Source of the DNA: an uncultured Prevotellaceae bacterium
GTDB lineage: Bacteria > Bacteroidota > Bacteroidia > Bacteroidales > Bacteroidaceae
Assembly: GCA_900316355.1 (NCBI GenBank)
Contig: ONCQ01000022.1
Coordinates: 1 to 39,063 of the forward strand
Direction: 5' to 3'
DNA length: 39,063 nt
In this document: one piece after another, positions 5,382 to 35,814 of the stretch
Numbering within the stretch: position 1 is the first letter of the stretch
Layout: each line of letters begins with the position of its first letter
Position numbers and translations under genes: made by a program
The notes under the pieces: model-generated
Database searches by the model: none
The model's input: the letters and a program-made list of their open reading frames with translations, nothing else
Told to the model about the DNA's origin: nothing

Positions 5382-6017
5382 ATGAAAATAGCCATTGTAA
5401 AATATAACGCAGGGAACATCTATTCCGTGGTGCACGCGCTGCGACGCTTAGGCGTGGAGCCCGTGCTGACGGACGATGCCGCCGAGCTGCGGGCAGCGGA
5501 TAAGGTGTTGTTCCCCGGTCAGGGCGAAGCGAGCCAGGCCATGAGCTATCTGCGCGAGCATGGCTTGGACGAGGTGATTCGCTCGCTGCGCCAACCTGTG
5601 CTGGGCATCTGCATCGGCCAGCAGCTGATGTGCCGCCACTCCGAGGAGGGCGACACGGAGTGTCTGGGCATCTTCCCCGCAGAGGTGAAGCGCTTCCAAC
5701 CGCAGCGACACGAGGACAAGGTGCCGCACATGGGATGGAACGAATTGAGAATTAAAAATGAAACATTAGAAATGAAACATGAGGGGGAGGAAGTGAGCGT
5801 GAATCCGCTGTTCCGCGGCCTGGCGGACGGGGACTTCGTGTACTTCGTGCATAGCTTCTATGTGCCGCAGTGCGAGTTCACCACCGCCACGACGGACTAT
5901 ATCCTACCCTTCTCCGCCGCCCTGCACAAGGATAACTTCTACGCCACTCAGTTCCACCCCGAGAAGAGCGGAGCCACAGGCGAGAAAATTCTCCGCAACT
6001 TCCTGGAAGTTGAATGA
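5382..6017 (+). CDS. hisH: Imidazole glycerol phosphate synthase, glutaminase subunit HisH
   Basis: Class-I glutamine amidotransferase subunit that supplies ammonia to HisF in histidine synthesis. The frame runs open from 5193, but homology starts at the ATG at 5382 (MKIAIVKYNAGN). The catalytic triad is visible: Cys77 in LGICIGQQ, His192 and Glu194 in QFHPEKSG. Length is 211 residues, slightly long because residues about 123-139 (RIKNETLEMKHEGEEVS) form an extra segment between the conserved HMGWN and NPLF parts; its DNA is AT-rich and repeat-like, unlike the GC-rich gene around it. First gene of hisH-hisA-hisF-hisIE, directly after a promoter. Confidence 0.97.
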   Translation: MKIAIVKYNAGNIYSVVHALRRLGVEPVLTDDAAELRAADKVLFPGQGEASQAMSYLREHGLDEVIRSLRQPVLGICIGQQLMCRHSEEGDTECLGIFPAEVKRFQPQRHEDKVPHMGWNELRIKNETLEMKHEGEEVSVNPLFRGLADGDFVYFVHSFYVPQCEFTTATTDYILPFSAALHKDNFYATQFHPEKSGATGEKILRNFLEVE

Positions 6018-6030
6018 TGAATTAATAAAA

Positions 6031-6097
6031 GCCCCCGAGCCCCCTAAAGGGGAGCGTAGATGCCCCCGAGCCCCCTAAAGGGGAGCGTAGGGAATGA
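6031..6097. repeat. Two tandem GC-rich repeat copies
   Basis: The unit GCCCCCGAGCCCCCTAAAGG + GGAGCGTAG occurs twice, at 6031-6059 and 6062-6090, the second followed by GGAATGA. Further copies are at about 6883-6918 and, inverted, at 35991-36025. Each contains the small hairpin CCCCTAAAGGGG. Confidence 0.85.
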
Positions 6098-6102
6098 AAC
6101 TT

Positions 6103-6132
6103 GAATTATTGAACTATTGAACTATTGAAACT
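6103..6132. repeat. TTGAACTA tandem words spanning the hisA start
   Basis: Copies of 'TTGAACTATTGAACTATTGAAAC' type lead straight into hisA, whose TTG initiator is part of the array. A longer array of the same words lies at 6957-7047 before hisF. Confidence 0.75.
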
Positions 6133-6925
6133 CATTCCTGCCATAGACATCATCGGAGGCCAGTGCGTACGCCTGACCAAGGGTGACTACGCCCAGAAGA
6201 CTGTCTATCGCGACTCGCCCGCCGAGGTGGCTGCCGAGTTCGAAGCGATGGGCTTCCAGCGTCTGCATGTGGTGGATCTGGACGGCGCGAAGTCCAAGCA
6301 TATCGTGAACAGCGCCGTGCTGAGCGCCATCACTGAGCGCACGTGCCTCACGGTGGATTTCGGTGGCGGCATCAAGACGGATGCTGACATCGAGGCGGCC
6401 TTTGCCGCGGGGGCAGCGATGGTGACGGTGGGTTCCGTCGCCGTGCAGCAGCCGGAACTCTTCATGCGATGGCTGGAGCGCTATGGCGCTGAGCGCCTGA
6501 TTCTGGGCGCCGACGTGCGTGGCGGCAAAATCAGCATCAACGGATGGAAGGAGGACAGCACCGAGGACCTCCTACCCTTCCTGCAACGATATATCGACGC
6601 GGGCATGCGCAACGTGCTGTGCACGGAGATCAGCAAGGACGGCACTCTGGCAGGCCCCGCCATCGACCTCTACAGCTCCATCATGGAGGCCTACCCCGAC
6701 ATCTGCCTCATCGCCAGCGGTGGCGTGAGCTGCATCGAGGACATCCGCGCCCTCGACGCTGCCGGCATCCCGGCTGTGGTGTTCGGCAAGGCCATCTACG
6801 AGGGGCAAATCAATCTGCGGGACCTCATCGCGGAGTTTCCGCAAAATGCCCCTAAAGCCCCCGAGTCCCCTAAAGCCCCCGAGCCCCCGAGCCCCCTAAA
6901 GGGGAGCGTAGGGAATGACGAATGA
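6125..6925 (+). CDS. hisA: HisA, phosphoribosylformimino-AICAR-phosphate isomerase
   Basis: TIM-barrel isomerase of histidine synthesis. The start is a TTG at 6125 (MKLIPAIDIIGG), the only start consistent with the family; it sits inside a TTGAACTA repeat array and has no ribosome site. The two catalytic aspartates are Asp8 (PAIDI) and Asp130 (LGADVRGG), and phosphate-binding glycine loops (VDFGGGI, ASGGVS) are intact. At 266 residues it is about 20 longer than usual: after 'LRDLIAEF' the frame runs on through a GC-rich repeat, giving the tail QNAPKAPESPKAPEPPSPLK and GSVGNDE. 107 bp after hisH. Confidence 0.96.
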   Translation: MKLIPAIDIIGGQCVRLTKGDYAQKTVYRDSPAEVAAEFEAMGFQRLHVVDLDGAKSKHIVNSAVLSAITERTCLTVDFGGGIKTDADIEAAFAAGAAMVTVGSVAVQQPELFMRWLERYGAERLILGADVRGGKISINGWKEDSTEDLLPFLQRYIDAGMRNVLCTEISKDGTLAGPAIDLYSSIMEAYPDICLIASGGVSCIEDIRALDAAGIPAVVFGKAIYEGQINLRDLIAEFPQNAPKAPESPKAPEPPSPLKGSVGNDE

Positions 6926-6963
6926 CGAATGATGAAGGACGAGTGAAGAATGACGAATGGAAC
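6846..6963. repeat. GC-rich repeat plus GAATGACGAATGA array
   Basis: Partial and complete copies of the GCCCCCGAGCCCC...TAAAGGGGAGCGTAG element (6855-6918) end inside hisA and are followed by GAATGACGAATGA-type words to 6963. The same composite occurs in reverse orientation at about 35910-36025, before the MBL-fold gene. Confidence 0.8.
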
Positions 6964-7047
6964 TTGAAACTTGAAACTTGAAACTTGGAACTCCTTGAAC
7001 TATTGAACTCCTTGAACTATTGAACTATTGAACTATTGAACTCTTAA
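6957..7047. repeat. AT-rich GAACTTGAAA / TTGAACTA array
   Basis: Four GAACTTGAAAC-type words followed by several TTGAACTCC and TTGAACTATTGAA words fill most of the hisA-hisF gap. The hisF start codon is 11 bp beyond. Confidence 0.8.
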
Positions 7048-7057
7048 ACAATATATA

Positions 7058-7813
7058 GTGTTAGCCAAACGCATCATACCCTGCTTAGATGTCAAGGACG
7101 GGCAGACCGTCAAAGGCACCAATTTCGTGAACCTGCGCCACGCCGGTGACCCTGTGGAATTGGGTCACGCCTACAGCGAACAGGGCGCCGACGAACTGGT
7201 GTACCTCGACATCACCGCCTCGCATGAGGGCCGCAAGACATTCACGGAGCTGGTGAGCCGCGTGGCCGCCACCGTGAACATCCCCTTCACCGTCGGCGGC
7301 GGCATCGGCGAACTCAGGGATGTGGACCGTCTGCTGAATGCCGGTGCCGACAAGGTGAGCGTGAACAGTGCTGCCCTGCGCCGCCCTGAGCTCATCGACG
7401 AGATCACAAGCCACTTCGGTTCGCAGGTCTGCGTGGTGGCCATCGACGCCCGGCTCGACGAGGGTGAATGGCGCTGCTACCTCAATGGTGGCCGCATCCC
7501 CACAGAGCGCTCGCTCTTCGACTGGGCCCACGAGGCGCAGGAGCGCGGCGCGGGCGAGATACTGTTCACCTCGATGAACCACGACGGCGTGAAGACTGGC
7601 TTCGCCAACGATGCCCTGCGCCGCCTGTCGGACTCGCTCTCCATACCCATCATCGCCTCGGGCGGCGCAGGCTGCAAGGAGCATTTCCGCGACACCTTCC
7701 TCGAAGGGCATTCGGATGCGGCGCTGGCGGCCTCGGTGTTCCATTTCGGCGAAATAAAGATTCCAGAACTCAAGGAATACTTGAAGGGAGAAGGGATAAC
7801 GGTGAGGATATAG
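7058..7813 (+). CDS. hisF: Imidazole glycerol phosphate synthase, cyclase subunit HisF
   Basis: TIM-barrel cyclase that joins ammonia from HisH with PRFAR to make imidazole glycerol phosphate and AICAR. It starts with GTG at 7058 ([15 protein letters not shown]), a textbook HisF N-terminus. Catalytic Asp11 (PCLD) and Asp130 (VVAID) are present, as are the phosphate-binding TVGGGI and IASGGAG loops. Length 251 residues is standard and there is no insertion. It is separated from hisA by a 132-bp repeat-filled gap, which is unusual since these genes normally abut, and from hisIE by a gap holding a GC-rich palindrome. Confidence 0.97.
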
Positions 7814-7818
7814 AAAAA

Positions 7819-7852
7819 GACCCACCCCCTACCCCTCCCGTTAGGGAGGGGA
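7819..7852 (-). repeat. 34-bp GC palindromic element, copy 1
   Basis: In the minus orientation CCCCTCCC-TAAC-GGGAGGGG followed by a G-rich tail ending GGGTGGGTC. It is nearly the same as copies at 7959-7992 (inside hisIE) and 36775-36808. Confidence 0.8.
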
Positions 7853-7926
7853 GAGCCTGCGGAATAGGGACCGAAACAACGAAAACGAAATATCGAGATT
7901 ACTAAAATAACAAAAAATTACAGACT

Positions 7927-8601
7927 ATGCCAAATAACGATACTACGCGCCAGCCAATCCCCTCCCTCATGGGAGGGGTCGGGGGTGGGTCCATTGACTT
8001 TGCCAAGATGGGCGGCCTCGTGCCTGCCATTATCCAGGACGCTGACACGCGTCAGGTGCTGATGCTCGGTTACATGAACCAGGAGGCCTACGACAAGACG
8101 GTGGCCGAAGGACGTGTCACCTTCTACTCCCGTACGCGCCAGACGCTGTGGACGAAGGGTGAGACGAGCGGCAACTTCCTCAACGTGGTCAGCATCAAGA
8201 ACGACTGCGACCAGGACACACTCCTCATCCGCGTACACCCCGAGGGCCCGGTCTGCCACACCGGCACCGACACCTGCTGGGGCGAAGAGAACACGGGCAA
8301 TCCTCTGCTGTTCCTCTCAGACCTGCAGGACTTCATCGAGCAGCGCCACCGCGAGATGCCCGAGGGCAGCTACACGACATCGCTCTTCAAGGACGGTCTG
8401 AACCGCATGGCGCAGAAGGTGGGCGAAGAGGCGCTGGAGCTGGTCATCGAAGCCTGCAACGGCACCGACGAGCGCATGATCTACGAGGGCTCTGACATGC
8501 TCTACCACCTCATCGTGCTGCTCACCTCCAAGGGCCTGCGCATCGAGGACATGGCGCGCGAGCTGCAGGAGCGCCACCAACCGGGATGGAAGAAGCACTA
8601 A
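7927..8601 (+). CDS. hisI: Bifunctional HisI/HisE (PRA-CH / PRA-PH)
   Basis: Fused phosphoribosyl-AMP cyclohydrolase (about residues 24-115) and phosphoribosyl-ATP pyrophosphohydrolase (about 120-224), steps 3 and 2 of histidine synthesis. The cyclohydrolase motifs GYMNQEA, FYSRTRQTLWTKGE and zinc-ligand CHTGTDTCW are visible; the HisE half has the QKVGEEALE helix and a YEGSDMLYHL stretch. Length 224. Residues about 10-22 (PIPSLMGGVGGGS) are encoded by a complete copy of the 34-bp palindromic element found twice elsewhere in the window, placed in frame just before the conserved domain. Upstream gap 113 bp, downstream gap 43 bp. Confidence 0.97.
   Translation: MPNNDTTRQPIPSLMGGVGGGSIDFAKMGGLVPAIIQDADTRQVLMLGYMNQEAYDKTVAEGRVTFYSRTRQTLWTKGETSGNFLNVVSIKNDCDQDTLLIRVHPEGPVCHTGTDTCWGEENTGNPLLFLSDLQDFIEQRHREMPEGSYTTSLFKDGLNRMAQKVGEEALELVIEACNGTDERMIYEGSDMLYHLIVLLTSKGLRIEDMARELQERHQPGWKKH
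7959..7992 (+). repeat. 34-bp GC palindromic element, copy 2, inside hisIE
   Basis: CCCCTCCC (7959-7966), TCAT, GGGAGGGG (7971-7978), then TCGGGGGTGGGTCC. It differs from the copy at 36775-36808 at only two positions by eye and lies entirely within the coding frame of hisIE. Confidence 0.85.
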
Positions 8602-8644
8602 CGGCCCGACCCCAATACTTACGAATTTGAAGATATAACGGATT

Positions 8645-9445
8645 ATGGTTATCGATTATAAGGAAGTGGACATCTGCCGCGACGAGGACACCATCCTCTA
8701 CAACGTGAACATGCACGTGGAGGAAGGCGATTTCGTGTACCTCACCGGCTTCGTGGGCAGCGGCAAGTCCTCGCTGCTGAAGACCATCTACGGCGAGCTG
8801 GACATCACCACCGGCAGCGCCGAGGTGCTGGGCAACGATATGCGCAACATCAAGCGCCGCCGCATCCCTGCCCTGCGCAAGCAGCTGGGCATCGTCTTCC
8901 AGGACTTCCGACTGCTCACAGACCGCAACGTCCGCGAGAACCTCGACTTCGTGCTGCGCTGCACCGGATGGAAGAACCGCACGGAGCGCGCACAGCGCAT
9001 CGCACAGGTGCTGGAGATTGTGGGGCTGCCTGACAAGCAGGAGTCCATGCCCCACGAGCTGTCGGGCGGCGAGCAGCAGCGCGTGTGCATCGCCCGTGCC
9101 ATCCTGAACACGCCCAAGCTCATCCTTGCCGACGAGGCCACGGGCAACCAGGACGAGGAGTCAGGGCTCCGCACCACGCAAATCCTCTATGACCTGTCCA
9201 AGCAGGGCACAGCCGTCATCATGGCAACCCACAACAACGGCATCATCGACCATTTCCCCGGCCGCGTGTATGAATGTCGCAACCACCAGCTCCTCAGCCT
9301 CGACAAGGCGCAAGAGGAGAGCGCCGGCAAGACTCCCGAGGCGCAAGTGGAACCTGAGGATAACGAAGCGAGCGCGGCGCCTGTTGATGACGACATCCCC
9401 GTGGCATCGGTGGCCGCAGAAACCAGTCAACCACAAGACAACTAA
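8645..9445 (+). CDS. FtsE-like ABC transporter ATP-binding protein
   Basis: A 266-residue ABC ATPase most like FtsE, which with FtsX controls peptidoglycan hydrolases at division. Walker [10 protein letters not shown] is at 35-43, Q-loop at VFQDF (84-88), signature LSGGEQQR at 139-146, Walker B LILADEA at 159-165 and switch His196 (MATHN). The D-loop region reads ADEATGNQD instead of the usual ADEPTGNLD. After residue 220 there is an acidic, proline- and alanine-rich tail of about 45 residues not found in typical FtsE. No ftsX is next to it; it sits between hisIE and lysC in one co-directional run. An alternative is a LolD/MacB-type ATPase. Confidence 0.85.
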
Positions 9446-9465
9446 ACATAAAACGACATACTAAG

Positions 9466-10809: not shown

Positions 10810-10839
10810 CATCCACACACTCACATACTCGACAGCCCT

Positions 10840-12006: not shown

Positions 12007-12035
12007 CCCTTTTATCCTGTGAAGTCTGTTAGCCC

Positions 12036-15414: not shown

Positions 15415-17259
15415 CTAATTCTTCGGTTTAAAGGAATCCTTCAGGCCCACGGTCTTGTTGAAGACCAGATGGTCAGGGGTGGAATCCGTGTCGATATTGA
15501 AATAGCCGATACGCTGGAACTGCAGGTAGGTCAGTGCGGGCAGCGATTGCACGAACTTCTCGACGTAGCAATTCTTGAGGATGTGCAGCGAGTCAGGATT
15601 CATCATCTGGCGCATCGCTTCGACATTCGAGAGGCCTTCGCCCTGCAGGCGTGCCAGCTCGTCGCGCGGGTTCTCGACCTGCCACAGGCGCTCGTACATG
15701 CGCACCTCTGCGGGCAGGCAGTGTCCACAGCTGAGCCAATGCAGCGTCTTGCCCTTAATCTTACGGTCGGCGCCGGGCTGTCCGCTGCGCGTCTCGGGAT
15801 CATAGGTTGCGTAGATGCAGGTGACATTGCCATCGGCATCGAGGTCGTAGGGATGTTCGCCTTCCTCGTTGCATTTGATGATGTATGCATTCTTCAGGCG
15901 CACCTCCTTGCCGGGAGCCAGGCGCATGAACTTCTTCTCGGCCACCGTCTGGAAGTCGTCGCGCTCTATCCACAGCTCACGTGAGAACTCAATGGTGTGC
16001 GTGCCGTCCTCCGGGCGTTCGGGGTTGTTGACAGCTTCCAGCTCCTCGACCTGTCCCTCGGGATAGTTCGTAATGACGAGCTTCACGGGGTTCACAACGG
16101 CCGAGACACGTGTGGCACGGCTATTCAAGTCGTCGCGTACAGCGCTCTCAAGGAGGGCAAAGTCATTGAGGGCATCGTAGGTGGTGTAGCCTATCTTGTT
16201 GATGAAATTGAGGATGCTCTCGGGTGAGTAGCCGCGACGGCGGAAAGCACAGATAGTGGGCATGCGGGGGTCGTCCCATCCGCTGACGAAGCCGTTCTGC
16301 ACCAATGCCAGCAGGTTGCGCTTGGACATCAGCGTGTAGTTCAGGTTCAGCTTATTGAACTCCGTCTGTCGGGGGCCCTGATAGGCCCCCTCTTCGTCCC
16401 CCGAGGGGGACACATATCCGCCGTCAATGAGTTTTTGGACCATCGAAGCCCCCTCGGGGGTTTGGGGGGCCTTCGCCAGCGACTCAAACCACTCGCGCAT
16501 CCATGTGACGAAGAGGTCATACAAGGGTCGGTGTTCCACAAACTCCAGCGTGCACCACGAGTGTGTGACGCCCTCGAGGTAGTCGCTCTGACCATGAGTG
16601 AAGTCGTACATGGGATAGGCATTCCACTTGTTGCCTGTGCGGATATGCGGCAGATTCAGCACGCGATAGATGAGCGGGTCGCGGAAGAGCATATTGGGAT
16701 GTGCCATGTCAATCTTCGCACGCAGCACCAAGGTGCCGGGCTCGCACTTACCGCTGTTCATGAACTCGAACAGGCGCAGGTTCTCCTCTACGGGGCGGTC
16801 GCGGAAGGGGCTGTTGGTGCCGGGTGAGGTGGTGGTACCCTTCTGCTTGGCAATCTCCTCGCTCGACTGCTCATCCACGTAGGCGCGGCCTTGCTTGATG
16901 AGCCATACGGCGAAGTCCCACAACTCCTGGAAATAGTCCGAGGCGTTGTAGATATGTCCCCACTCGAAGCCCAGCCAGCGGATGTCCTGCTCGATGGCGT
17001 CCATATATTCGGTGTCCTCCTTCTGAGGGTTGGTGTCGTCGAAGCGCAGGTTGCACACACCGCCGTACTTCTTTGCCAATCCGAAATCGATGGCGATGGC
17101 CTTGGCGTGGCCGATATGCAGATAGCCATTGGGTTCGGGCGGGAAGCGCGTCTGCAGGCGTCCGCCGTTCTTGCCTTCGGCCAGGTCGTTGATGACTTTC
17201 TGTTCGATGAAGCTCACGCTCTTTTTCTCCTGAGCTTCGCTGTTGTTAATCTCTGCCAT
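15415..17259 (-). CDS. glnS: Glutaminyl-tRNA synthetase
   Basis: Class I synthetase that charges tRNA-Gln. The start MAEINN at 17259 is followed by PPEPNGYLHIGHAKA (HIGH at 48-51), the FDDTNP motif, and LMSKRNL in place of KMSKS; the C-terminal half is the anticodon-binding beta barrels. Length 614 is longer than the usual 550-580. Residues 264-295 (AP QTPEGASMVQ ... EEGAYQG), encoded by 16375-16470, are an extra 32 residues inserted exactly in frame between the YDLFVTW region and PRQTEFNKLNL. The insert DNA consists of C/G-run palindromes like those in intergenic repeats here. Middle gene of ribE-glnS-TPR. Confidence 0.96.
   Translation of the reverse strand: MAEINNSEAQEKKSVSFIEQKVINDLAEGKNGGRLQTRFPPEPNGYLHIGHAKAIAIDFGLAKKYGGVCNLRFDDTNPQKEDTEYMDAIEQDIRWLGFEWGHIYNASDYFQELWDFAVWLIKQGRAYVDEQSSEEIAKQKGTTTSPGTNSPFRDRPVEENLRLFEFMNSGKCEPGTLVLRAKIDMAHPNMLFRDPLIYRVLNLPHIRTGNKWNAYPMYDFTHGQSDYLEGVTHSWCTLEFVEHRPLYDLFVTWMREWFESLAKAPQTPEGASMVQKLIDGGYVSPSGDEEGAYQGPRQTEFNKLNLNYTLMSKRNLLALVQNGFVSGWDDPRMPTICAFRRRGYSPESILNFINKIGYTTYDALNDFALLESAVRDDLNSRATRVSAVVNPVKLVITNYPEGQVEELEAVNNPERPEDGTHTIEFSRELWIERDDFQTVAEKKFMRLAPGKEVRLKNAYIIKCNEEGEHPYDLDADGNVTCIYATYDPETRSGQPGADRKIKGKTLHWLSCGHCLPAEVRMYERLWQVENPRDELARLQGEGLSNVEAMRQMMNPDSLHILKNCYVEKFVQSLPALTYLQFQRIGYFNIDTDSTPDHLVFNKTVGLKDSFKPKN
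16375..16470 (-). repeat. Palindrome-rich 96-bp insert within glnS
   Basis: It contains three small hairpins on the plus strand: GGGGGCC/GGCCCCC near 16371-16390, GTCCCCC/GGGGGAC near 16397-16412 and CCCCC-TC-GGGGG at about 16449-16460. On the minus strand the end nearest the gene start (GGCCCCCCAAACCCCCGAGG...) resembles the intergenic element at 35838-35872. Confidence 0.65.
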
Positions 17260-25090: not shown

Positions 25091-27973
25091 TTAGTACCAT
25101 TGGAGTGTATTGGTATAGCTGCTCTGCTTGCGCCACTTGAGCACGTCGGCGAGCGTCGAGGAGTTAGCAGCAAAGGTGAAGTTATAGGAGGTGTAAGGGG
25201 TGATGACCATGCTGGCCGACATCGTGAAGCAGTGGAGGTCGCGCGACACGGAGGCGGTGGTCATGGAGAGCTTCTTATAGTTGAAATCATAGCCCGACGA
25301 CCATGAGATATTCCAGCCAGAGGCAATCTGTATGTTGCCGGAGAAGTTCAGCGTATGGGTGAGCTTATAGGGATAACGCATGCGCTTCTCATTGATCTTG
25401 GCTTGCGTGTCCTCACGCAAGGAAACGCCGTACGACACCGACACCGACCAAGGAATCTTGAACTTCACATAGCCGTCCTCGTCGAGGTCGTCACCTTTGC
25501 TTTCGCGCCGGGCAGCATGTTGGCCCTTGGTCAGTTCAGGGTCGAGGTTGGTGTCGTTCAGATTCTCCGCATAGTTCTCATCCTCCTCATCCTCGCTGTC
25601 ACGTTTGCGACTCTCCTTGTCCTTACCGAAGAGTTTGGCAAATGTCTGGTTGTTGAAGGTATAGGAGAAGTTCTGGCTCATACCCTGGAAGCGGCCGAAG
25701 CGACCATGACTCCATTCCGTGCGCTCACCCACCACGACATTGCCCTGCTCGTTGAACTCATAGGCATACGTAGCGAACTGGGCATTGAGGGAGAAGGTGT
25801 AGCTCTTGGTGAGCTTCAGGCGGATGCGCATGTTCAGGTCGCTCCACGGGCGCGACTTGGCAGCCATGTTATAGCTGAGTGAGCCACCGAGTTCATCAAT
25901 CAGACTTATCTTCTTGTACCCCGTGGAATCCTTTGAGGAGGGGACCTTCATCTCCACGTTGTTAGACACATCGAGCGCCACATTACCCGTCATGCCTTGT
26001 CCGGGAACGCCGTACATGGCGCCTTGATAGGGAGAGTAGTTGACGGTGGAGACATTGCCCTTGCTGTCGGTCTTCACATAGGTGTCATAGAAGCCCCAAT
26101 GGGAGGCACCGAAGTCGGGGGCATAGGAGAAGCTGAGCGAGGGCGTGAAGACGTGGCGGATGCGTGTGCGGCGCAGCGCAGAGTTCTTCTTGCCGATGAG
26201 CGGCACGAAGGTACCGTAGAGCTTCGTGGAGGCCGAGAGGCTCATGTTGAAGTCATAGACATTGTAGAAGCCGTAGGTGGTGTCGCGCACCTCCTGCTGT
26301 GCCTCCTGGTTCCAGGAACGGTTGACCTTGTTGAAGTACATGCGGTCCTGGAAATTGAACGAGGGCGTGATGTTGATGTAGTTCGCCACCGTGAACGAGG
26401 CGTTGATGGGGATAGAATGGCGCATGCCATTACGCCAGTCCTTGATGAGGTTTGATTTCAGAATCTTGTCCTCCTTGGTGGAAATGGAGTTGGAGAAGGT
26501 TCCCGTGTAACTCATGGCAATCTTCTCATACCAGCGCTCCTTACCGGTCATCTTCTTGCGCTTGAAGGGATTGAAGCGGGCCAGGGAGATGTTGACCGAA
26601 GGCAACGTCATGGAGATGCTGGAGTCGCGCACGTTCTGCGACAGGTTCATCGTGGCGGCGATGGTCAGACCGATATCCGGGAAGCTACGGCTGTAGGAGA
26701 TGGACGAGGTACGCGTGCTCTGCGTGTAGCTCTGCGGATTGTACATCGACGTGAGGTTGTTACGCTCATAGCTGGAGGTGGCGAAGTTCACGCTGGCAGA
26801 GAAGCTCTGACGCGGATTGGCCTTGCTGTCCTGGCGGTGACTCCACTGCACCTTGAAACTCTTGGACACGCTGTAGTCGGGCATGTTCTTCTCGCCTTCT
26901 ACCGTGTTTTGATAGGAGATGTTGATGGCGCCGCCGAAGCGATAACGCTTCTTATAGTTGCTCTGTGCGGAGAGGCCCCATGAGCCTTTGGTGTATATCT
27001 CGCCCAGCACTTTCAAATCCAGCTTGTCGCTGATGGCGAAGTAGTAGCCGCCATCGCGGAGATAGAAGCCGCGCGTGGTTTCATCACCGTAGGTAGGCAT
27101 GATGATACCGCTGGAATAGCTGCTGGTGAAGGGGAAGAAGCCATAGGGTATGGCCAGCGGCAACGGGACATCTTCCACGACGAGATAGGCAGGACCGAAG
27201 ACGACATCCTTGCCCGGGCGCATCTTGGCGCGCGTCAGCTGGAGATAGAAGTGGGGGTGCTTGGCATCGCACGTCGTGTAGCGCGCGTTGCGGATGTACA
27301 TCGTTCCCGAGGAGTCACGCTTGCTCTCATTGCTCACCATGAAGCCCTCGCCCTGCTGGGTGAAGACATTATGGATGAAAGCCTTGCGCGTCTTGAAGTT
27401 ATAGGCGATATCGTCGGGCTCGTACTCATCGTCGCCTTGTTTGAAGACGGGCGGCGAGACCATATTTCCCAGCGAGTCCTTGCGGCCAAGGGCATGCACG
27501 ACGCTGCTATCGACGCTCATCGTAATGTAGTCGGCCGTCAGGTCCAGGTTCTGGTATTTCACATTCGCCTCACCGTAGAAGTTCACGCGGTTGGCGCCAT
27601 AGTCATAGACGAGGGAGTCCTTGGCCACGAAGTCCACAGGCGCATCCAGCGCGCTCTTGCTCTGCTTCGTGGTATCCACCTTCACCGTGTCGGCCTTCGT
27701 CTGCCCGCCGACGCCCAGATATACCGTGTCGCCGTTCACAACGAGATAGCGCAGCGTGTCTGCCACCGCACTGTCAAGCCTCACGCTGTCGATTGCGGGG
27801 ATGCTGTCATTTGCGGGGATGCTGTCGTTCGCGGGGATGCTGTCGTTCGCGGGAATGCTGTCGCGGCGCAGCTGCGGTGACTGGCGCAGACGTGAAGCAG
27901 GCGTGGTGACAGAGGCCATCACGAAGCTAACAATCGCAGCAAAAACGCATATCGGAAGGAGTCGTCTGCTCAC
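25091..27973 (-). CDS. lptD: LptD-like outer membrane LPS-assembly protein
   Basis: A 960-residue outer-membrane beta-barrel protein that inserts LPS into the outer leaflet. The frame extends to 28024, but a TATTTTTG box sits at 28001-27994, so I start at the GTG at 27973, which gives a clean signal peptide (SRRLLPICVFAAIVSFVMA). After it comes a four-fold DSIPAN/DSIPAI repeat, then an OstA/LptA-like periplasmic domain (about 105-270, VDFVAKDSLVYDYGANRVNFYG) and a long barrel (IPYGFFPF...GIIMPTYGDE, alternating strands to the C-terminus NTLQWY). It is followed by the BACON lipoprotein and GH51 genes. Product identity is good at family level. Confidence 0.9.
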   Translation of the reverse strand: MSRRLLPICVFAAIVSFVMASVTTPASRLRQSPQLRRDSIPANDSIPANDSIPANDSIPAIDSVRLDSAVADTLRYLVVNGDTVYLGVGGQTKADTVKVDTTKQSKSALDAPVDFVAKDSLVYDYGANRVNFYGEANVKYQNLDLTADYITMSVDSSVVHALGRKDSLGNMVSPPVFKQGDDEYEPDDIAYNFKTRKAFIHNVFTQQGEGFMVSNESKRDSSGTMYIRNARYTTCDAKHPHFYLQLTRAKMRPGKDVVFGPAYLVVEDVPLPLAIPYGFFPFTSSYSSGIIMPTYGDETTRGFYLRDGGYYFAISDKLDLKVLGEIYTKGSWGLSAQSNYKKRYRFGGAINISYQNTVEGEKNMPDYSVSKSFKVQWSHRQDSKANPRQSFSASVNFATSSYERNNLTSMYNPQSYTQSTRTSSISYSRSFPDIGLTIAATMNLSQNVRDSSISMTLPSVNISLARFNPFKRKKMTGKERWYEKIAMSYTGTFSNSISTKEDKILKSNLIKDWRNGMRHSIPINASFTVANYINITPSFNFQDRMYFNKVNRSWNQEAQQEVRDTTYGFYNVYDFNMSLSASTKLYGTFVPLIGKKNSALRRTRIRHVFTPSLSFSYAPDFGASHWGFYDTYVKTDSKGNVSTVNYSPYQGAMYGVPGQGMTGNVALDVSNNVEMKVPSSKDSTGYKKISLIDELGGSLSYNMAAKSRPWSDLNMRIRLKLTKSYTFSLNAQFATYAYEFNEQGNVVVGERTEWSHGRFGRFQGMSQNFSYTFNNQTFAKLFGKDKESRKRDSEDEEDENYAENLNDTNLDPELTKGQHAARRESKGDDLDEDGYVKFKIPWSVSVSYGVSLREDTQAKINEKRMRYPYKLTHTLNFSGNIQIASGWNISWSSGYDFNYKKLSMTTASVSRDLHCFTMSASMVITPYTSYNFTFAANSSTLADVLKWRKQSSYTNTLQWY
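27790..27865. repeat. 18-bp tandem repeat in lptD
   Basis: About four copies of an 18-bp unit (GGGGATGCTGTCNTTCGC on plus) encode DSIPAN repeats just after the signal peptide. Exact tandem copies of this kind readily change number by slippage. Confidence 0.85.
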
Positions 27974-28025: not shown

Positions 28026-28054
28026 AATTTTCAGCATTATTAACCACAAAGACG

Positions 28055-28594
28055 CTATAAATCTCCAAATCGGCGCAACCAACCTTGCATACGGTCGATA
28101 CCTTCGCTGCCGAATTTCTCTAAACTGCGCAGCACCTGCTCGGGTGTTCTCACGCGTTCCAAATGGCTCTTGGAAAAGAACTTATCAGCGTAGCAGATAA
28201 TCTGTTCCTCGATGGTTTCGGGGGAGTAGTCGGCAAGGGGTAAGGGTAATTGCTGCCGCTCAATGGTCTCGCGCGTCAAGCCCGTACCTGTGTGGCGCTC
28301 GGCCACGCGTGCATGGCGAGGCAAGCCCTCGCGGCGAAGCAGTTCACCGCCCAAGAGACCATGCTTGATATAGGGTTCCGTGCCATAGCATTGAATGCCA
28401 GGGGCATCGGTCAGGTAGATGCCGATGTCATGGAGCATGGCGGCCTCATACAAGAACACCTCGTCAGCGCCCAGCTCAGGATGCCTGCGTGCCACAGCCA
28501 CAGCCATCTCTGCCACGCTCTGGCTATGCGTCACAAGGATATGACGAAGCGCCGGCTGGTCATGATAATATTTGTCGATCAGTTCCTCAACCAT
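28055..28594 (-). CDS. HD-domain hydrolase (179 aa)
   Basis: A small metal-dependent phosphohydrolase of the HD superfamily. The metal ligands are visible as His in LVTHSQSV, the HD doublet in AAMLHDIGIYL, a downstream His in YIKHGLLGG and the Asp in CYADKFFSK. The 179-residue length and the 'ERHTGTGL' motif fit the stand-alone HDIG-like group that acts on nucleotides; the substrate is unknown. Its start overlaps the end of the C10 protease gene by 16 bp in a different frame, so it is likely translated from the same message. Confidence 0.88.
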   Translation of the reverse strand: MVEELIDKYYHDQPALRHILVTHSQSVAEMAVAVARRHPELGADEVFLYEAAMLHDIGIYLTDAPGIQCYGTEPYIKHGLLGGELLRREGLPRHARVAERHTGTGLTRETIERQQLPLPLADYSPETIEEQIICYADKFFSKSHLERVRTPEQVLRSLEKFGSEGIDRMQGWLRRFGDL

Positions 28595-30348: not shown

Positions 30349-30360
30349 CACCACCCTATC

Positions 30361-31299: not shown

Positions 31300-31324
31300 A
31301 AGGTTGTCTGTAGGGGTGAAACAA

Positions 31325-31996
31325 TCAGCCTTTGCGCACCTCGGCGATGATGTCCAGACACTCGCGGCATTTGTCGGTGACATACTGCCAGTCCTCGGCA
31401 GCCACCTTGTCCTTGGGGAAGAGCTTCGAGCCCATGCCCACGCAATAGACGCCGGCCTTGAACCATGCCTTCAGGTTCTCTGCCTCGGGGGCTACACCGC
31501 CCGTGACCATGATCTTGGACCACGGCATGGGTGCCATCAGACCTTTAACCATGTTGGGGCCATAGACATCGCCGGGGAAGAGCTTCGTCAGATCGCAGCC
31601 CAGCTCCTGTGCCTTTCCAATCTCGCTGACGCTGCCGCAGCCCGGGCAGTAAGGCACCAGACGGCGGTTGCAGACGGGAGCTATCTCGGGGTTGAACAGG
31701 GGACCTACAACGAAGCAGGCACCCAGCTGCAGGTACATAGCGGCCGTGGGGGCATCCACGACGCTGCCGATGCCCAGCGCCAGCTCGGGGCACTCCTTGG
31801 CGGCGAACTTCACGCACTCGGCAAAGACCTCCTGGGCGAAATCGCCGCGGTTAGTGAACTCGAAGGCGCGCACGCCACCTTCATAACAGGCCTTGATGAC
31901 CTTCTTGGCCACCTCGGCATCCTTGTGGTAGAACACCGGCACCATCGGTGCCTCCTTGATCTTGGCCAACACAGCCATCTTATCGAATCTTGCCAT
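31325..31996 (-). CDS. eda: KDPG/KHG aldolase-like protein
   Basis: Class I aldolase cleaving 2-keto-3-deoxy-6-phosphogluconate to pyruvate and glyceraldehyde-3-phosphate, the step after KdgK. I start at the ATG at 31996 ([10 protein letters not shown]), the usual Bacteroidetes start; six codons further upstream are repeat sequence. The Schiff-base lysine is in LTKLFPGD and the catalytic glutamate in AFEFTNRG; the phosphate loop is TGGVAPE. Length 223. The kinase gene kdgK is 450 bp upstream on the same strand, interrupted by a four-helix-bundle gene. Confidence 0.93.
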
Positions 31997-32004
31997 CGTT
32001 TTTA

Positions 32005-32041
32005 TATTTGACAATTTGACAATTTACAATTTGACAATTAG
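32005..32041. repeat. AATTTGACAATT tandem words
   Basis: Three to four words of AATTTGACAATTTACAATTTG type between eda and the four-helix-bundle gene. Related arrays are at 32405-32450, 33622-33690 and 34965-35037. Confidence 0.8.
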
Positions 32042-32046
32042 ATACT

Positions 32047-32406
32047 TTAGCTATTTAAATGATACCGTGTTGTGACAATAGACTTTACAATAATACTTAA
32101 CAATTCTTTTCCTTCATTATAAAGAGGCTGTAATCGATTAGAAGACATCATGTTTGTTTCCATGATGATTTCAAGCCAATGTACGGTTTCATCTAGTTCT
32201 TCTTCAACCATTTTCAATTTGTTGATGAAGTCTTTTTCTGATTTTGAAATGCAAGCGGCACGATAATTTGCAGAAGGAGAAGTCCCGGAGCGGACAATCT
32301 GACTGGCAATAGCTCTTCCAGAAATGGTATTGGGCATACTGTCAACCATTTTGACAATTCGCACCGCGAACGATTTGAACCGTTTCTTCAACTCTTCCTC
32401 TGTCAT
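32047..32406 (-). CDS. Four-helix-bundle protein (S23/IVP-like, 119 aa)
   Basis: A 119-residue all-helical protein of the four-helix-bundle family related to the 23S rRNA intervening-sequence protein and to Avd of diversity-generating retroelements. Its marks are SQIVRSGTSPSANYRAA and the later F..KL..VEEELDETVHWLE. I use the ATG at 32406 (MTEEELKKRF) since the longer frame is repeat-encoded. It is AT-rich against its GC-rich neighbours, sits between kdgK and eda, and is bracketed on both sides by the same AATTGTAAATTGTC-type arrays, so it looks acquired. No reverse transcriptase or variable repeat is present in the window. Function unknown. Confidence 0.85.
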   Translation of the reverse strand: MTEEELKKRFKSFAVRIVKMVDSMPNTISGRAIASQIVRSGTSPSANYRAACISKSEKDFINKLKMVEEELDETVHWLEIIMETNMMSSNRLQPLYNEGKELLSIIVKSIVTTRYHLNS

Positions 32407-32450
32407 TGCATTTGCAATTGTAAAATTGTAAATTGTCCAATTGTCCAATT
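32405..32450. repeat. AATTGTAAATTGTCC array
   Basis: Words of the type TTGTAAAATTGTAAATTGTCCAATT lie between the four-helix-bundle gene start and the kdgK stop. They match the arrays at 33622-33690 and 34965-35037. Confidence 0.8.
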
Positions 32451-32453
32451 AGG

Positions 32454-33476
32454 TTATCGTTGTACTCTGCCGTTGGCATTACCGCCGGCCAGTGCCTCCA
32501 CTTCCTCTACGCTGACGAGGTTGAAGTCGCCGTTGATGGTGTGCTTCAGGGCGCTGGCAGCTACGGCGAACTCCAGGGCCTCGCCCTGTGTGGCCTTCGT
32601 CAGCAGGCCGTGGATCAAGCCGCCGGAGAAGCTGTCGCCACCACCCACACGGTCGATGATGGGGTCGATGTCGTAGCGCTTGCTCTGGTAGAACTCCTTG
32701 CCGTCGAAGATGAGGGCCTTCCAGCCGTTGTGCGTAGCCGAGAAGCTCTCGCGCAGCGTGGAGACGACATACTTGAAGCCGAACTCCTCGCGCATCTGGC
32801 GGAAGATGCCTTCGTAGCCGGCAGCGTCGGTCTTACCGCCCTCGACATCGGCGTCGGGCTTGAAGCCGAGGCAGAGCTCTGCATCCTCTTCGTTGCCGAT
32901 GCAGACATCTACATATTGCATCAGCGGGCGCATAATGCTGATGGCCTTCTCGCTCGTCCACAGCTTCTTGCGGAAGTTGAGGTCCACGCTGACGGTCACG
33001 CCGTGACGCTTCGCAGCCTCGCAGGCCAGACGCGTCAGCTCAGCAGCCTTGTCGCTGATGGCAGGCGTGATGCCGCTCCAGTGGAACCAGTCGGCACCCT
33101 CCATGATCTTGTCGAAGTCGAAGTCGGCGGGCACAGCCTCGGCGATGGCGCTGTGAGCGCGGTCGTAGATGACCTTCGAGGGGCGCATAGAGGCGCCCGT
33201 CTCAGCATAGTACAATCCCACACGGTCGCCGCCACGGGCGATGAAGCGGGTGTCCACGCCATAGCGGCGCATGGCATTCACGGCAATCTGGCCGATCTCA
33301 TGCTTGGGCAGCTTCGACACGAAGTAAGCCTCGTGGCCGTAGTTGGCCAGCGAGATAGCCACATTGGCTTCACCGCCGCCGGGGATGATACGGAAAGATT
33401 CACTCTGAATGAAACGGTCGTTGCCGTTGGGAGAAAGGCGAAGCATCAGTTCGCCAAGGGTTACAATCTTTGACAT
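32454..33476 (-). CDS. kdgK: 2-keto-3-deoxygluconate kinase (PfkB family)
   Basis: PfkB-type sugar kinase phosphorylating 2-keto-3-deoxygluconate, the last step of hexuronate degradation before the aldolase. The 340-residue protein starts MSKIVTLGELMLRLSP, shows the N-terminal PfkB signature GGGEANVAISLANYG and the C-terminal signature DRVGGGDSFSGGLI, whose Asp is the catalytic base. It has a strong promoter and sits upstream of eda, confirming the pathway. A sugar specificity other than KDG is possible for this family, but the pairing with eda makes KDG likely. Confidence 0.94.
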   Translation of the reverse strand: MSKIVTLGELMLRLSPNGNDRFIQSESFRIIPGGGEANVAISLANYGHEAYFVSKLPKHEIGQIAVNAMRRYGVDTRFIARGGDRVGLYYAETGASMRPSKVIYDRAHSAIAEAVPADFDFDKIMEGADWFHWSGITPAISDKAAELTRLACEAAKRHGVTVSVDLNFRKKLWTSEKAISIMRPLMQYVDVCIGNEEDAELCLGFKPDADVEGGKTDAAGYEGIFRQMREEFGFKYVVSTLRESFSATHNGWKALIFDGKEFYQSKRYDIDPIIDRVGGGDSFSGGLIHGLLTKATQGEALEFAVAASALKHTINGDFNLVSVEEVEALAGGNANGRVQR

Positions 33477-33510
33477 AGTATGATTTTACGATTGAACTAT
33501 TCACAGCGGG

Positions 33511-33541
33511 CAAAAGTACACAATTTGACCCGAATATCAAA
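33511..33541 (-). promoter_or_regulatory. Promoter of kdgK
   Basis: On minus: TTTG (33541-33538), 19 bp, TACTTTTG (33518-33511), a full consensus match, about 35 bp before the kdgK ATG. Confidence 0.8.
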
Positions 33542-33592
33542 AAGAATTGTCTAAAAAACGTTCGTTTTTCAACAAAAAGCCCTACCTTTGCA

Positions 33593-33600
33593 CACTGCGA
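33593..33600 (+). promoter_or_regulatory. Promoter of the NhaC-type antiporter
   Basis: TACCTTTG on plus, divergent from the kdgK promoter. The -33 position reads TTCG, so only the -7 box is good. The leader of about 85 nt contains a TTGTCCAAT-type repeat array. Confidence 0.55.
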
Positions 33601-33621
33601 GGGGCCCTCACAGCCCTAATC

Positions 33622-33690
33622 GTCAAATTGTAAATTGTCTAATCGTCCAATCAACGAGGTTGTCCAATTGTCCCATCAACAGGGTTATCC
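33622..33690. repeat. TTGTCCAATTGTC / CAATCAAC array before nhaC
   Basis: AATTGTAAATTGTC words followed by two copies of GTCCAAT..TCAAC(G/A)(A/G)GGTT. The array runs to within two bases of the chosen antiporter start; the longer reading frame from 33635 is repeat-encoded. Confidence 0.75.
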
Positions 33691-33691
33691 A

Positions 33692-34960
33692 ATGAAAGCG
33701 GGAATGCTTGCACTAAGTCCTATTGCGGTGTTTCTGGTCGTGTATGTCGCGGCCAGCATCATTGCCGGCGACTTCTACAAGGTGCCCATCAGCGTGGCTT
33801 TCCTGCTGACCAGCATCTATGCCATCGCCATCACGCGGGGTGATTCCCTACGCCAGCGCATCACCCTCTTCTCGCAGGGTGCCGGCCAACCAGACATCCT
33901 GCTGATGATATGGATCTTCATCCTTGCCGGTGCCTTTGCTGCCTCGGCAAAGACCATGGGAGCTATCGATGCTACGGTTCAACTATCGCTTCAACTGCTG
34001 CCCGATAACTTACTGTTAGCCGGACTATTCCTCTCAGCATGTTTTATCTCCCTGAGCATCGGCACAAGCGTCGGCACCGTGGTGGCTTTGGTGCCGATAG
34101 CCGCCGGCATCGCCGATGCCACCACGGCCTCCGTGCCCATGGTCGTGGGCGTTGTCGTGGGCGGCGCCTTCTTCGGCGACAACCTCAGCTTCATCTCCGA
34201 CACCACCATCATGGCCACGCGCACACAGGGGTGCCGCATGAGCGACAAGTTCCGCGTGAACTCGCGCATCGTCACGCCTGCTGCCATACTCGTACTCTTG
34301 CTATATATCGTGATGGGCACCCGGATGCACTCCCCGCAGGTAACGGAAGCCGTGGATGTGATGAAGGTATTGCCGTATGTCGTCGTCCTCGTCACGGCCA
34401 TCGCCGGGCTGGATGTGATGCTGGTGCTGGTCACCGGCCTGCTCCTGAGCGGCATCATCGGCATCGCCTACGGCAGCTACGACCTCTTCGGCTGGTTCGG
34501 GGCCATGGGCGAAGGTATCCTGGGCATGGGCGAGCTGATCATCGTGACGATGCTTGCGGGCGGACTCATGGCCCTCATCCGCCATGGCGGAGGGCTGGCA
34601 TTCATCATCCGGCTGCTGACACGCCGCGTGCACAGCTCCCGCGGTGCCGAGCTCACCATCGGCAGCCTCGTGATGCTCACCAATTTCTGCACGGCCAACA
34701 ACACCGTTGCCATCCTCACCGTGGGCCCCATCGCCCGCGAGATTGCCGAGCGCTTCGGCGTGGACCCCCGCAAGAGCGCCAGCCTGCTCGACACCTTCTC
34801 CTGTCTGGCGCAGGCCATCATCCCCTATGGCGCGCAGCTCCTCATGGCCGCCTCGCTGGCAGCCCTCAGCCCCGTAGAGATCATACCTTATTTATATTAC
34901 CCCTTCTGCATGGGCCTCTTCGCCATAGCAGCCATCCTCTTCCGTCGCCCCAAATTGTAA
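33692..34960 (+). CDS. NhaC-family Na+/H+ antiporter
   Basis: A 422-residue inner-membrane antiporter with about eleven to twelve predicted helices. The chosen ATG at 33692 begins MKAGMLALSPIAVFLVVY, straight into the first helix; 19 upstream codons of the longer frame are repeat sequence. NhaC marks include SIGTSVGTVVALVPIAAGIA, GGAFFGDNLSFISDTTI (a conserved acidic ion-binding segment) and TNFCTANNTVAI. The likely role is sodium or small-ion exchange for pH or salt balance, though some relatives move organic acids. Divergent from kdgK. Confidence 0.9.
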   Translation: MKAGMLALSPIAVFLVVYVAASIIAGDFYKVPISVAFLLTSIYAIAITRGDSLRQRITLFSQGAGQPDILLMIWIFILAGAFAASAKTMGAIDATVQLSLQLLPDNLLLAGLFLSACFISLSIGTSVGTVVALVPIAAGIADATTASVPMVVGVVVGGAFFGDNLSFISDTTIMATRTQGCRMSDKFRVNSRIVTPAAILVLLLYIVMGTRMHSPQVTEAVDVMKVLPYVVVLVTAIAGLDVMLVLVTGLLLSGIIGIAYGSYDLFGWFGAMGEGILGMGELIIVTMLAGGLMALIRHGGGLAFIIRLLTRRVHSSRGAELTIGSLVMLTNFCTANNTVAILTVGPIAREIAERFGVDPRKSASLLDTFSCLAQAIIPYGAQLLMAASLAALSPVEIIPYLYYPFCMGLFAIAAILFRRPKL

Positions 34961-34964
34961 AATG

Positions 34965-35037
34965 TCCATATAATTGTCAAATTGTAAATTGTCTAATTGT
35001 CCCATAATCGTCCAATTGTAAATTGTCCAATTGTCAA
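34965..35037. repeat. AATTGTCAAATTGTAAATTGTC array before rsmG
   Basis: Repeated words of AATTGTAAATTGTCCAATTGTC type fill the gap between the antiporter and rsmG. The rsmG ATG is formed by the last word (GTCAAATG). Confidence 0.85.
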
Positions 35038-35814
35038 ATGATCATAGCCCATTACTTCCCCACCCTCACCCCCGAGCAGCGCGAGCGCTTTGCAGCCCTC
35101 GACGCCCTCTACCACGACTGGAATGCCAAGATCAATGTCATCTCGCGCAAGGACATCGACAACCTCTATGAGCACCATGTCCTCCACTCGCTGGGCATCG
35201 CCGAAATCATCAACTTCCGCCCCGGCACACGCATCATGGACCTCGGCACCGGCGGCGGCTTCCCCGGCATACCCCTGGCCATCATGTTCCCCGAGGCGCA
35301 GTTCCATCTGGTCGATAGCATCGGCAAGAAGATACGCGTCTGCAACGAGGTCATCGCCGCCCTCGGCCTCACCAATGTCACCACCCAGCACGCCCGCGCC
35401 GAGGAAGTGCGCTACGTCCCCAATCCCAAGAAGCTGAAGAAACACGGCACTCCCGCCCCCGCTCCCGCGCCAATGACAGCTGCCCCCCATCCCTCTGCAT
35501 CGCCTTTGGCGATGGCGGGCGGCGATTCCGTCGCCGTCGCCCCATCCTCCCTCCTTCAGCCCGCCCGCTTCGACTTCGTCGTCAGCCGCGCTGTGATGCC
35601 CCTGGCCGACCTCGTGAAGATTGCGCGCCCGCATATCGCACAGAACCCGAACGCCGCCAACGCCCTCCCCAACGGCCTCATCGCCCTCAAGGGCGGCGAG
35701 CTGGAGCATGAGGCTGCCGCCGTGAAGGGCGAGAAGCTCATCACACCCCTCTCCGACTACTTCTCCGAAGAATACTTCGAAACAAAGAAAGTCGTGTATG
35801 TTCAACTCAGTTGA
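35038..35814 (+). CDS. rsmG: 16S rRNA m7G527 methyltransferase RsmG
   Basis: SAM-dependent methyltransferase acting on G527 of 16S rRNA. ATG at 35038 gives MIIAHYFPTLTPEQ; upstream codons are repeat. Family marks: WNAKINVISRKD, the SAM loop MDLGTGGGFPGIPLAI (67-82), LVDSIGKKIR, and FVVSRAV. At 258 residues it exceeds the usual 205-215 because about residues 127-175 (PNPKKLKKHG...SSLLQPA), rich in Ala and Pro, intervene between the AEEVRY strand and FDFVVSRAV. The insert DNA contains a perfect hairpin at 35498-35514 and looks like the GC-rich repeats around it. Confidence 0.95.
   Translation: MIIAHYFPTLTPEQRERFAALDALYHDWNAKINVISRKDIDNLYEHHVLHSLGIAEIINFRPGTRIMDLGTGGGFPGIPLAIMFPEAQFHLVDSIGKKIRVCNEVIAALGLTNVTTQHARAEEVRYVPNPKKLKKHGTPAPAPAPMTAAPHPSASPLAMAGGDSVAVAPSSLLQPARFDFVVSRAVMPLADLVKIARPHIAQNPNAANALPNGLIALKGGELEHEAAAVKGEKLITPLSDYFSEEYFETKKVVYVQLS
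35498..35514. repeat. Hairpin inside the rsmG insertion
   Basis: CATCGCC-TTT-GGCGATG, a perfect 7-bp stem, followed at 35520-35543 by a weaker GGCGA/TCGCC inverted repeat. Both lie within the non-conserved segment of rsmG. Confidence 0.7.

What the first reader, a model, noticed from the sequence alone, without database searches (positions are those of the whole stretch)
5740..35560. Dispersed repeats inserted in frame inside conserved housekeeping genes
hisH, hisIE, glnS and rsmG each carry an extra in-frame segment absent from the usual family layout, and hisA has an extra tail. In every case the extra DNA is palindromic or low-complexity and like intergenic repeats nearby. The length is always a multiple of three and the site is between conserved blocks. 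This is the outcome known for Rickettsia palindromic elements, but I know of no described equivalent in Bacteroidales. It suggests a class of small elements that spread through genes, tolerated at surface loops.
Basis: partly seen in the sequence, partly recalled or inferred. Interest (0 to 1): 0.78.

Follow-up and report, generated by a model that had tools for sequence, protein, structure and literature searches.

The report
Palindromic repeats inserted inside housekeeping genes
In gut bacteria related to Prevotella, short palindromic repeats have spread into essential genes without visibly breaking them, adding about 15 extra amino acids at tolerant places, often as mirror-image pairs around a piece of the gene's own DNA.

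Summary
The observation largely holds and reaches beyond the window. HisIE (N-terminus) and hisA (tail) carry copies of two dispersed palindromic families (B, A). The GlnRS insert matches two further palindrome motifs (J type). The hisH and rsmG inserts are low-complexity and were not tied to a family; rsmG's ends are shared with five relatives. One UvrA arm is missing in all 16 orthologues aligned; the IorA N-terminal arm in all 26 that reach it. Relatives hold other repeats in the same HisH, GlnRS and UvrA loops. Close pairs of B/B' arms are tails-outward (29 of 29; in G003 17 of 20, the rest same-direction) and match by subfamily, yet in IorA, UvrA and CTP synthase they bracket the gene's own sequence. 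B is patchy: 33 of 301 genomes, 7 of 30 genera. Best reading: REP/RPE-like non-autonomous elements that selection keeps at in-frame, tolerant sites. A Y1 transposase (RAYT) does not track them. The kind is known from Rickettsia and some REP-rich bacteria; host group, scale and paired geometry look new.

The parts
7819..7859 (+). Family B arm (tail-first, 'L' form) just after the hisF stop codon
   Evidence: Inverted partner of 7951-7991; consensus nnnnAAGACCCACCCCCGACCCCTCCCGTGAGGGAGGGGAG
7951..7991 (+). Family B arm (tail-last, 'R' form), read inside hisIE as RQPIPSLMGGVGGGS
   Evidence: not in the 34 orthologue rows printed
7860..7950 (+). Interior between the two arms; holds the hisIE start codon (ATG 7927) and leader MPNNDTT
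   Evidence: predicted RNA fold pairs the two arms with the start codon in the loop, z -8.3
36771..36810 (-). Single intergenic family B arm downstream of the MBL-fold hydrolase gene
   Evidence: (I3)
6845..6925 (+). hisA C-terminal extension made of family A repeat
   Evidence: (D5, D6, I1)
6028..6098 (+). Two tandem family A copies (31-nt spacing) between hisH and hisA
35985..36026 (-). Family A copy between rsmG and the MBL-fold hydrolase gene
   Evidence: (I1, I2, I6)
5742..5807 (+). hisH loop (residues 121-142) lengthened by low-complexity DNA; about 14 residues more than the consensus loop of 8
   Evidence: AlphaFold2 pLDDT 74 and 54 for residues 121-130 and 131-140, mean 90.2
16378..16485 (-). 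glnS insert (residues 259-294) with two GC-rich palindromes of the J type; limits taken from the split matches
35410..35568 (+). rsmG insert; ends similar in five relatives, middle not shared
6101..6129 (+). Low-complexity TTGAACTA array at the hisA start
6913..7043 (+). Low-complexity arrays (GAATGAC, AACTTGA, TTGAACTA) from the end of hisA to just before hisF

Best explanation
These are several families of short, non-autonomous, palindromic repeats (family B/B' is the clearest, with arms of about 45 nt) that multiply in patchy bursts in this genus and some other genera of its family. Insertion is probably broad; selection then keeps intergenic copies and copies that stay open and in frame in a loop, soon after a start codon or near a stop codon, so the gene still makes a working protein with about 15 extra residues. 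Arms often come as tail-outward pairs, REPIN-like, that can fold into one long hairpin. Shown: copy numbers, in-frame location with conserved protein on both sides in several genes, absence at orthologous sites, pair geometry, subfamily matching. Inferred: mobility, translation, the order of events, and an enzyme, which is unknown.
For: Genome-wide counts with zero reversed-pattern hits. 64 of 103 B/B' copies in called genes with score over 40; 67 of 577 such genes hold a palindromic arm, in a sample partly chosen around hits. Of 68 B/B' units 31 lie inside one gene, 18 across a gene edge, 19 between genes. Orthologues: UvrA arm missing in 16 of 16 aligned; IorA N-terminal arm in 26 of 26; plain GlnRS loop in 23 of 29. 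Gaps at the insert against solved proteins. Pairs 29 of 29 tail-outward, matched by subfamily (0 of 10,000 shuffles). G003: 61 arms, 43 in genes, 17 LR of 20 close neighbours, 3 of 5,000 shuffles. Same peptides in genus g54 (G207: 8 of 14 arms in called genes). Patchy: 33 of 301 genomes. In IorA no ATG, GTG or TTG codon lies in frame between the N-terminal arm and the first conserved residues, so the arm must be translated.
Against: No mobile enzyme was identified: Y1_Tnp has no match at E 0.001 in B-rich G015, G018 and G019. No target-site duplication or exact empty site could be read, because the loops have diverged. Within family B alone the arms of a pair are no more alike than shuffled arms (9,039 of 10,000 shuffles reach the score), nor in the 4 short B' pairs. 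In two cases G019 seems to have one arm where G000 has two, one UvrA arm of G000 is also in G015, and one B arm site is shared with G019, so insertions are not all species-specific or paired. 'Inside a gene' rests on my own caller, which only calls open frames; with frames judged on each flank separately, 22 of 68 units were same-frame and open, 20 had flanks in different frames, 13 a stop between, 11 a non-coding flank, 2 opposite strands. Most pairs among these sit at gene junctions; the single arms were not checked one by one for broken genes. In the LeuRS alignment the insert is not a gap.
Confidence: 0.8

Rival explanations
1. True REPINs moved by a RAYT (HUH, Y1-type transposase) encoded in the same genome.
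For: Inverted doublets with variable spacer, as in REPINs (PMC3116915, passages). Two weak Y1_Tnp matches in G000, one gene (C44:7107-8264) ending about 12 nt from a family A copy. G003 has one weak match.
Against: Three of five B-rich genomes of the genus have no Y1_Tnp match, though they are 73-85% complete. The nearest B or B' arm in my sample is about 1 kb from one G000 gene (C44:9226) and 2.7 kb from the other (C34:66083). The B consensus has no GTAG or CGTC tag. Most B/B' copies are intragenic.
Confidence: 0.15
2. No mobile element: a local mutational process (slippage for the 7-8 nt arrays, template switching that copies an inverted arm nearby) expands and mirrors repeats at tolerant sites.
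For: Period 7-8 arrays. Close inverted pairs also occur in low-complexity families, each in one order only (D 2, F 2, G 5, H 5). G019 seems to show one arm where G000 has two.
Against: Family B is one specific sequence of about 45 nt shared by distant loci and by 7 of 30 genera sampled, which local mutation alone does not make. A and E give no close inverted pair, and direct neighbours also occur (D 2, E 3, H 2, A 1).
Confidence: 0.2
3. The pairs are selected regulatory RNA structures: arms around gene junctions hide or expose the start codon.
For: Arms pair over the hisIE start with z -8.3. In G000 10 of 18 tail-last B arms lie within 60 nt of a start, none of 28 tail-first.
Against: In G003 one tail-first arm also lies within 60 nt of a start, against 5 tail-last. 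Eight of 29 pairs lie wholly inside genes. No intact pair is seen at the orthologous junctions examined. The bias can follow from which orientation stays open near a start.
Confidence: 0.1
4. Inserts are skipped or removed (translational bypass or RNA processing), or are assembly artefacts or pseudogenes.
For: Strong predicted hairpin in the mRNA.
Against: Where conserved protein lies on both sides (IorA, UvrA, CTP synthase, transcarbamylase) the reading frame runs through the insert, which skipping would not require; the same peptides recur in independent genomes.
Confidence: 0.04

Closest known systems
Rickettsia palindromic elements (RPE; also Wolbachia)
   Same: Several palindromic families inserted in frame in unrelated conserved genes and between genes (PMC2229807 and PMC10969869, passages).
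   Different: RPEs are given as about 105-150 bp units in obligate intracellular alphaproteobacteria; here arms of about 45 nt, single or paired around host DNA, in gut Bacteroidales.
REP / REPIN sequences with RAYT transposases
   Same: Short palindromes, inverted doublets with variable spacer; intragenic REPs are known in several species, even in uvrA (PMC3733652, section 15 read; PMC3116915, passages).
   Different: Mostly intragenic here; no GTAG/CGTC tag in B; no consistent Y1 transposase; spacer is native coding DNA in three genes.
Bacterial MITEs with fused reading frames (RU-1/ERIC, Correia, QMITE)
   Same: Non-autonomous repeats that fuse in frame to host genes (PMC2759123, abstract and outline; PMC2229807 and PMC10969869, passages).
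   Different: No target-site duplication or parent insertion sequence found here.
BrickBuilt (Porphyromonas gingivalis) and PINSR (Prevotella intermedia) repeats
   Same: Dispersed repeats amplified in one lineage of Bacteroidales (PMC4596501 and PMC4755523, passages).
   Different: Both are reported as intergenic; sequences were not compared.
Heptamer arrays (TAACTGA repeats; cyanobacterial STRRs, recalled)
   Same: Period-7 arrays near starts, reported in some Bacteroidetes (PMC4679880, passages including the abstract).
   Different: Here also inside genes and as inverted pairs.
Coding inverted repeats of Nematomorpha mitochondria
   Same: Inverted repeats inside protein genes (PMC6649704, abstract and outline).
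   Different: There both arms encode conserved native sequence; here arms are dispersed repeats.

Membership tests
RPE | Palindromic repeat family found both between and inside protein genes, in frame | tested here: met
RPE | Unit length about 105-150 bp | tested here: not met
   Arms about 45 nt; pairs 126-253 nt with 24 nt counted beyond each palindrome
RPE | Sequence homology to a described RPE family | not tested
   No RPE sequence was compared
RPE | Insert-bearing protein is made and active | not testable with these tools
   Needs proteomics or enzyme assay
REPIN | Inverted doublets of one palindrome | tested here: met
   29 of 29; 17 of 20 in G003
REPIN | Extragenic location | tested here: not met
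   64 of 103 copies in called genes; 43 of 61 in G003
REPIN | RAYT (Y1 transposase) in the same genome, flanked by the repeat | tested here: not met
   No Y1_Tnp match in G015, G018, G019, which are 73-85% complete; nearest B/B' arms about 1 kb and 2.7 kb from the two G000 matches
REPIN | GTAG or CGTC tag next to the stem | tested here: inconclusive
   Absent in the B consensus; family A has GTAG a few nt past its stem
MITE | Terminal inverted repeats | tested here: met
   Arms of a pair are inverted copies
MITE | Target-site duplication | tested here: inconclusive
   No exact empty site; loops diverged
MITE | Parent insertion sequence with the same ends | not tested
   Only Y1_Tnp was searched

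The most novel reading that the evidence does not exclude
A sequence-blind two-ended insertion process: when a short stretch of DNA is nicked on opposite strands 20-200 nt apart, the same short sequence is added to both 3' ends, so any repeat in the genome (GC palindrome or heptamer array) ends up as a fixed-order inverted pair around unduplicated host DNA. This would be a new way to spread DNA, neither classical transposition (no duplication of the enclosed target) nor local slippage.
Probability: 0.12. Interest if true: 0.88.

Novelty: new variant of a known kind. Interest (0 to 1): 0.72.

Why it matters
It suggests that in-frame palindromic invasion of conserved genes, best known from Rickettsia, also runs at large scale in gut and rumen bacteria, with several families at once and patchy bursts. 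Related species with and without inserts in the same GlnRS, HisH, UvrA or IorA loop make a natural test of how proteins tolerate insertions. The fixed-order inverted pairs around native sequence pose a concrete, testable question about how such repeats move. It also matters for annotation: N-terminal extensions of this kind can be mistaken for native sequence.

Tried and rejected
RAYT as the mover of B: not supported as a general rule, because Y1_Tnp does not track B. Chance palindromes: rejected. The reversed-sequence control is not valid for family H, whose motif reads almost the same backwards (32 control hits), and gave 4 hits for G and 1 each for C2, E and F; H and G copy numbers are therefore not used as evidence of excess. 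A shared interior (ordinary MITE) was considered for the pairs: interiors of B pairs look unrelated by eye, and three in-gene interiors are native (IorA, CTP synthase, UvrA); the other five in-gene interiors were not shown either way. For B' the leader next to the R arm looks shared by eye, not tested. No tree of B copies was made. The gene caller is my own simple hexamer model, so gene counts are approximate; it was used on other genera without retraining. The B' list overlaps its B list and is not counted apart.

Rows dropped or partly seen: one search printed 34 of 76-80 orthologues per protein; one search aligned 16 of the 29 UvrA orthologue loci fetched; one search had one locus (G013) with the cores not placed; the gap printed as 0 for site 81399 comes from overlapping flanks and is not read as an empty site; one search found a two-mismatch palindrome match in the G015 IorA gene near the first internal loop and single two-mismatch matches in L166 and L178, which I read as decayed or chance.

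Full report
What was given. The window is contig C25 of an unnamed 3.16 Mb genome in 69 contigs, 91% complete. The named relatives by HisF are mostly MAGs labelled Bacteroidales, Bacteroidaceae or Prevotellaceae, many from rumen or gut.

The window. Family B occurs as an inverted pair at 7819-7859 and 7951-7991 and singly at 36771-36810. The pair brackets the hisF stop and the hisIE start: the left arm follows the stop, the right arm is read as part of an N-terminal extension. Of 25 relatives examined, eight (L033, L034, L035, L045, L048, L049, L051, L054) have hisF and hisIE 6 nt apart by the measure that gives 183 nt in the window; the others placed range from 11 to 127 nt and one (L036) was not placed. 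L031 has a leader there that may be a decayed B' arm, by eye. Family A makes the hisA tail and lies between genes at 6028-6098 and 35985-36026. GlnRS holds two palindromes whose motifs recur in the sample. HisH and RsmG hold low-complexity inserts that I could not assign.

Genome scale. The exact family A core occurs 72 times and the family B palindrome 56 times on each strand (a palindrome is mostly seen from both), with no hit for the reversed patterns. I sampled 838,821 bases, window included, partly around hits, so rates per genome are upper estimates. With one mismatch allowed, 32 of 48 B copies and 17 of 64 A-like copies lie inside called genes. With looser loops 64 of 103 B/B' copies are in genes with score over 40, and 67 of 577 such genes hold at least one palindromic arm. 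On four large stretches (C34, C37, C41, C32), also picked for having hits, 26 of 307 genes hold B/B'. Family models match several carriers, above the curated cut-off for MutL, HisRS, MutS2, SufS and PorX and below it for IorA and PurM; two of ten proteins tried matched nothing. LeuRS, CTP synthase, a transcarbamylase and UvrA matched solved structures. Model matches to IorA, SufS and PorX begin right after the arm, at residues 23, 23 and 29.

Comparison with relatives. IorA: 27 orthologues were aligned, 26 reach the N-terminus, and none shows the N-terminal arm; the inner two arms sit where relatives have short, variable loops, with one degenerate two-mismatch match in G015. UvrA: the arm RPTPDPSREGGEPSG is missing in 16 of 16 orthologues aligned and falls on a gap against solved 3pih; but the arm near residue 620 has a close counterpart in G015, and G019 seems to keep a decayed right arm of the pair. 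GlnRS: 22 of 29 relatives have a 51-nt loop and one 48 nt; G018, G026, G027, G028 and G007 carry other segments in frame (63-126 nt), and G013 could not be placed. HisH: among the 34 rows printed of 76, most loops are short while five carry other long inserts. At site C34:90665, G019 has a B arm, G015 a GACCATT-type array, and G002 and G016 neither. So the same tolerant loops hold different repeats in different species. RsmG is the exception: five of 29 relatives share the ends of the insert.

Geometry. Of 68 B/B' units, 29 are pairs (less than 180 nt apart), all tail-outward; 21 and 17 are single arms of either direction, one is unclear. Arms of a pair belong to the same subfamily far more often than shuffled arms (score 28.8 against 20.5, 0 of 10,000); within family B alone (13 pairs) there is no extra likeness, within the 12 long B' pairs there is (2 of 10,000), within 4 short ones not. 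In G003, 409,589 bases gave 61 arms, 43 in genes, and among 20 close neighbours 17 LR, 2 RR, 1 LL and no RL. Other repeat families also show close inverted pairs in one order only (D 2, F 2, G 5, H 5); E and A show none, and direct neighbours occur in D, E, H and A. Near-start copies: in G000 10 of 18 tail-last B arms lie within 60 nt of a start and 0 of 28 tail-first; in G003 5 tail-last and 1 tail-first. In IorA, CTP synthase and UvrA the DNA between the two arms is the gene's own. In two cases G019 seems to have one arm where G000 has a pair, so pairs are not always gained or kept together.

Distribution and enzyme. In the family, 33 of 301 genomes and 7 of 30 genera match the longer B pattern with up to one mismatch, with many copies in few (forward and reverse hits: own 26 and 27, G304 21 and 31, G150 13 and 13, G207 7 and 12). 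The shorter pattern is frequent (27 or more per strand) in 5 of 37 genomes of the genus, rare (at most 8) in 10, and absent from 22 of them and from 24 genomes of other families. Y1_Tnp is found in 13 of 38 genus genomes but not in B-rich G015, G018 and G019, which are 73-85% complete. In other genera 7 of 22 arms (G304), 8 of 14 (G207) and 0 of 3 (G150) fell in called genes.

Structure. The HisH model has mean pLDDT 90.2, with 75, 74 and 54 for the blocks 111-120, 121-130 and 131-140, and matches solved HisH. The hisF-hisIE RNA is predicted to fold into one long stem made by the two arms (z -8.3). The insert falls on a gap in UvrA and the transcarbamylase, largely on gaps in CTP synthase, and not on a gap in LeuRS.

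How it probably works. Shown: dispersed families, in-frame location, absence in orthologues, pair geometry. Inferred: the repeats multiply by an unidentified enzyme or repair process, insert broadly, and persist where the protein tolerates them. Translation of inserts is very likely, since flanking conserved parts lie in one frame and IorA has no other start codon of the common kinds, but it was not measured.

What is known. RPEs in Rickettsia and Wolbachia, intragenic REPs in several other bacteria, and MITEs with fused reading frames are the same kind of thing (abstract and outline, one section, passages). Eight searches of the held library listed no title or abstract that describes such elements in Bacteroidales genes; I saw listings, and passages of three Bacteroidales papers on repeats, of which two report their repeats as intergenic. 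Subscription papers are mostly not held. I therefore file this as a new variant of a known kind, not as RPE or REPIN proper, because length, location or transposase features fail.

Noticed in passing
L050, L053, L056, L058, L060, L062, L065, L066 and others (hisF loci of relatives): HisF matches are 789 nt instead of 753, an apparent 12-residue insert in a group of relatives; L032 and L077 have smaller ones.
   Followed up: no
G000 C34:62097-63431 (L151) and C44:7107-8264 (L152): Two Y1-transposase-like proteins each carry an in-frame low-complexity repeat (DESKARG..., SPSSPSASLA...) at what looks like the same place.
   Followed up: partly
G000 C24:135599-138910 (L132): Carbamoyl-phosphate synthase small and large subunits (recognised by eye) look fused in one reading frame that also carries several repeat inserts.
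   Followed up: no
window 27785-27863: An 18-nt tandem repeat (4.4 copies) lies inside the lptD-like gene, a multiple of three.
   Followed up: no
G000 C24:149866-150000, C20:31491-31636, C32:18016-18137: Inverted H-type arrays (GTGAAAA/TTTTCAC) bracket called start codons, and the second arm seems to encode the hydrophobic part of a signal peptide (by eye).
   Followed up: partly
L313 (G033 UvrA) and L165 (G033 IorA): G033 has long tandem KQGKEL and SDLSDK repeats in loops where other species have other sequences.
   Followed up: no
G304 C1:156794-157127 (L234): In a 99% complete genome of another genus, B arms form a tandem array with about 70-nt spacing, outside the called genes.
   Followed up: no
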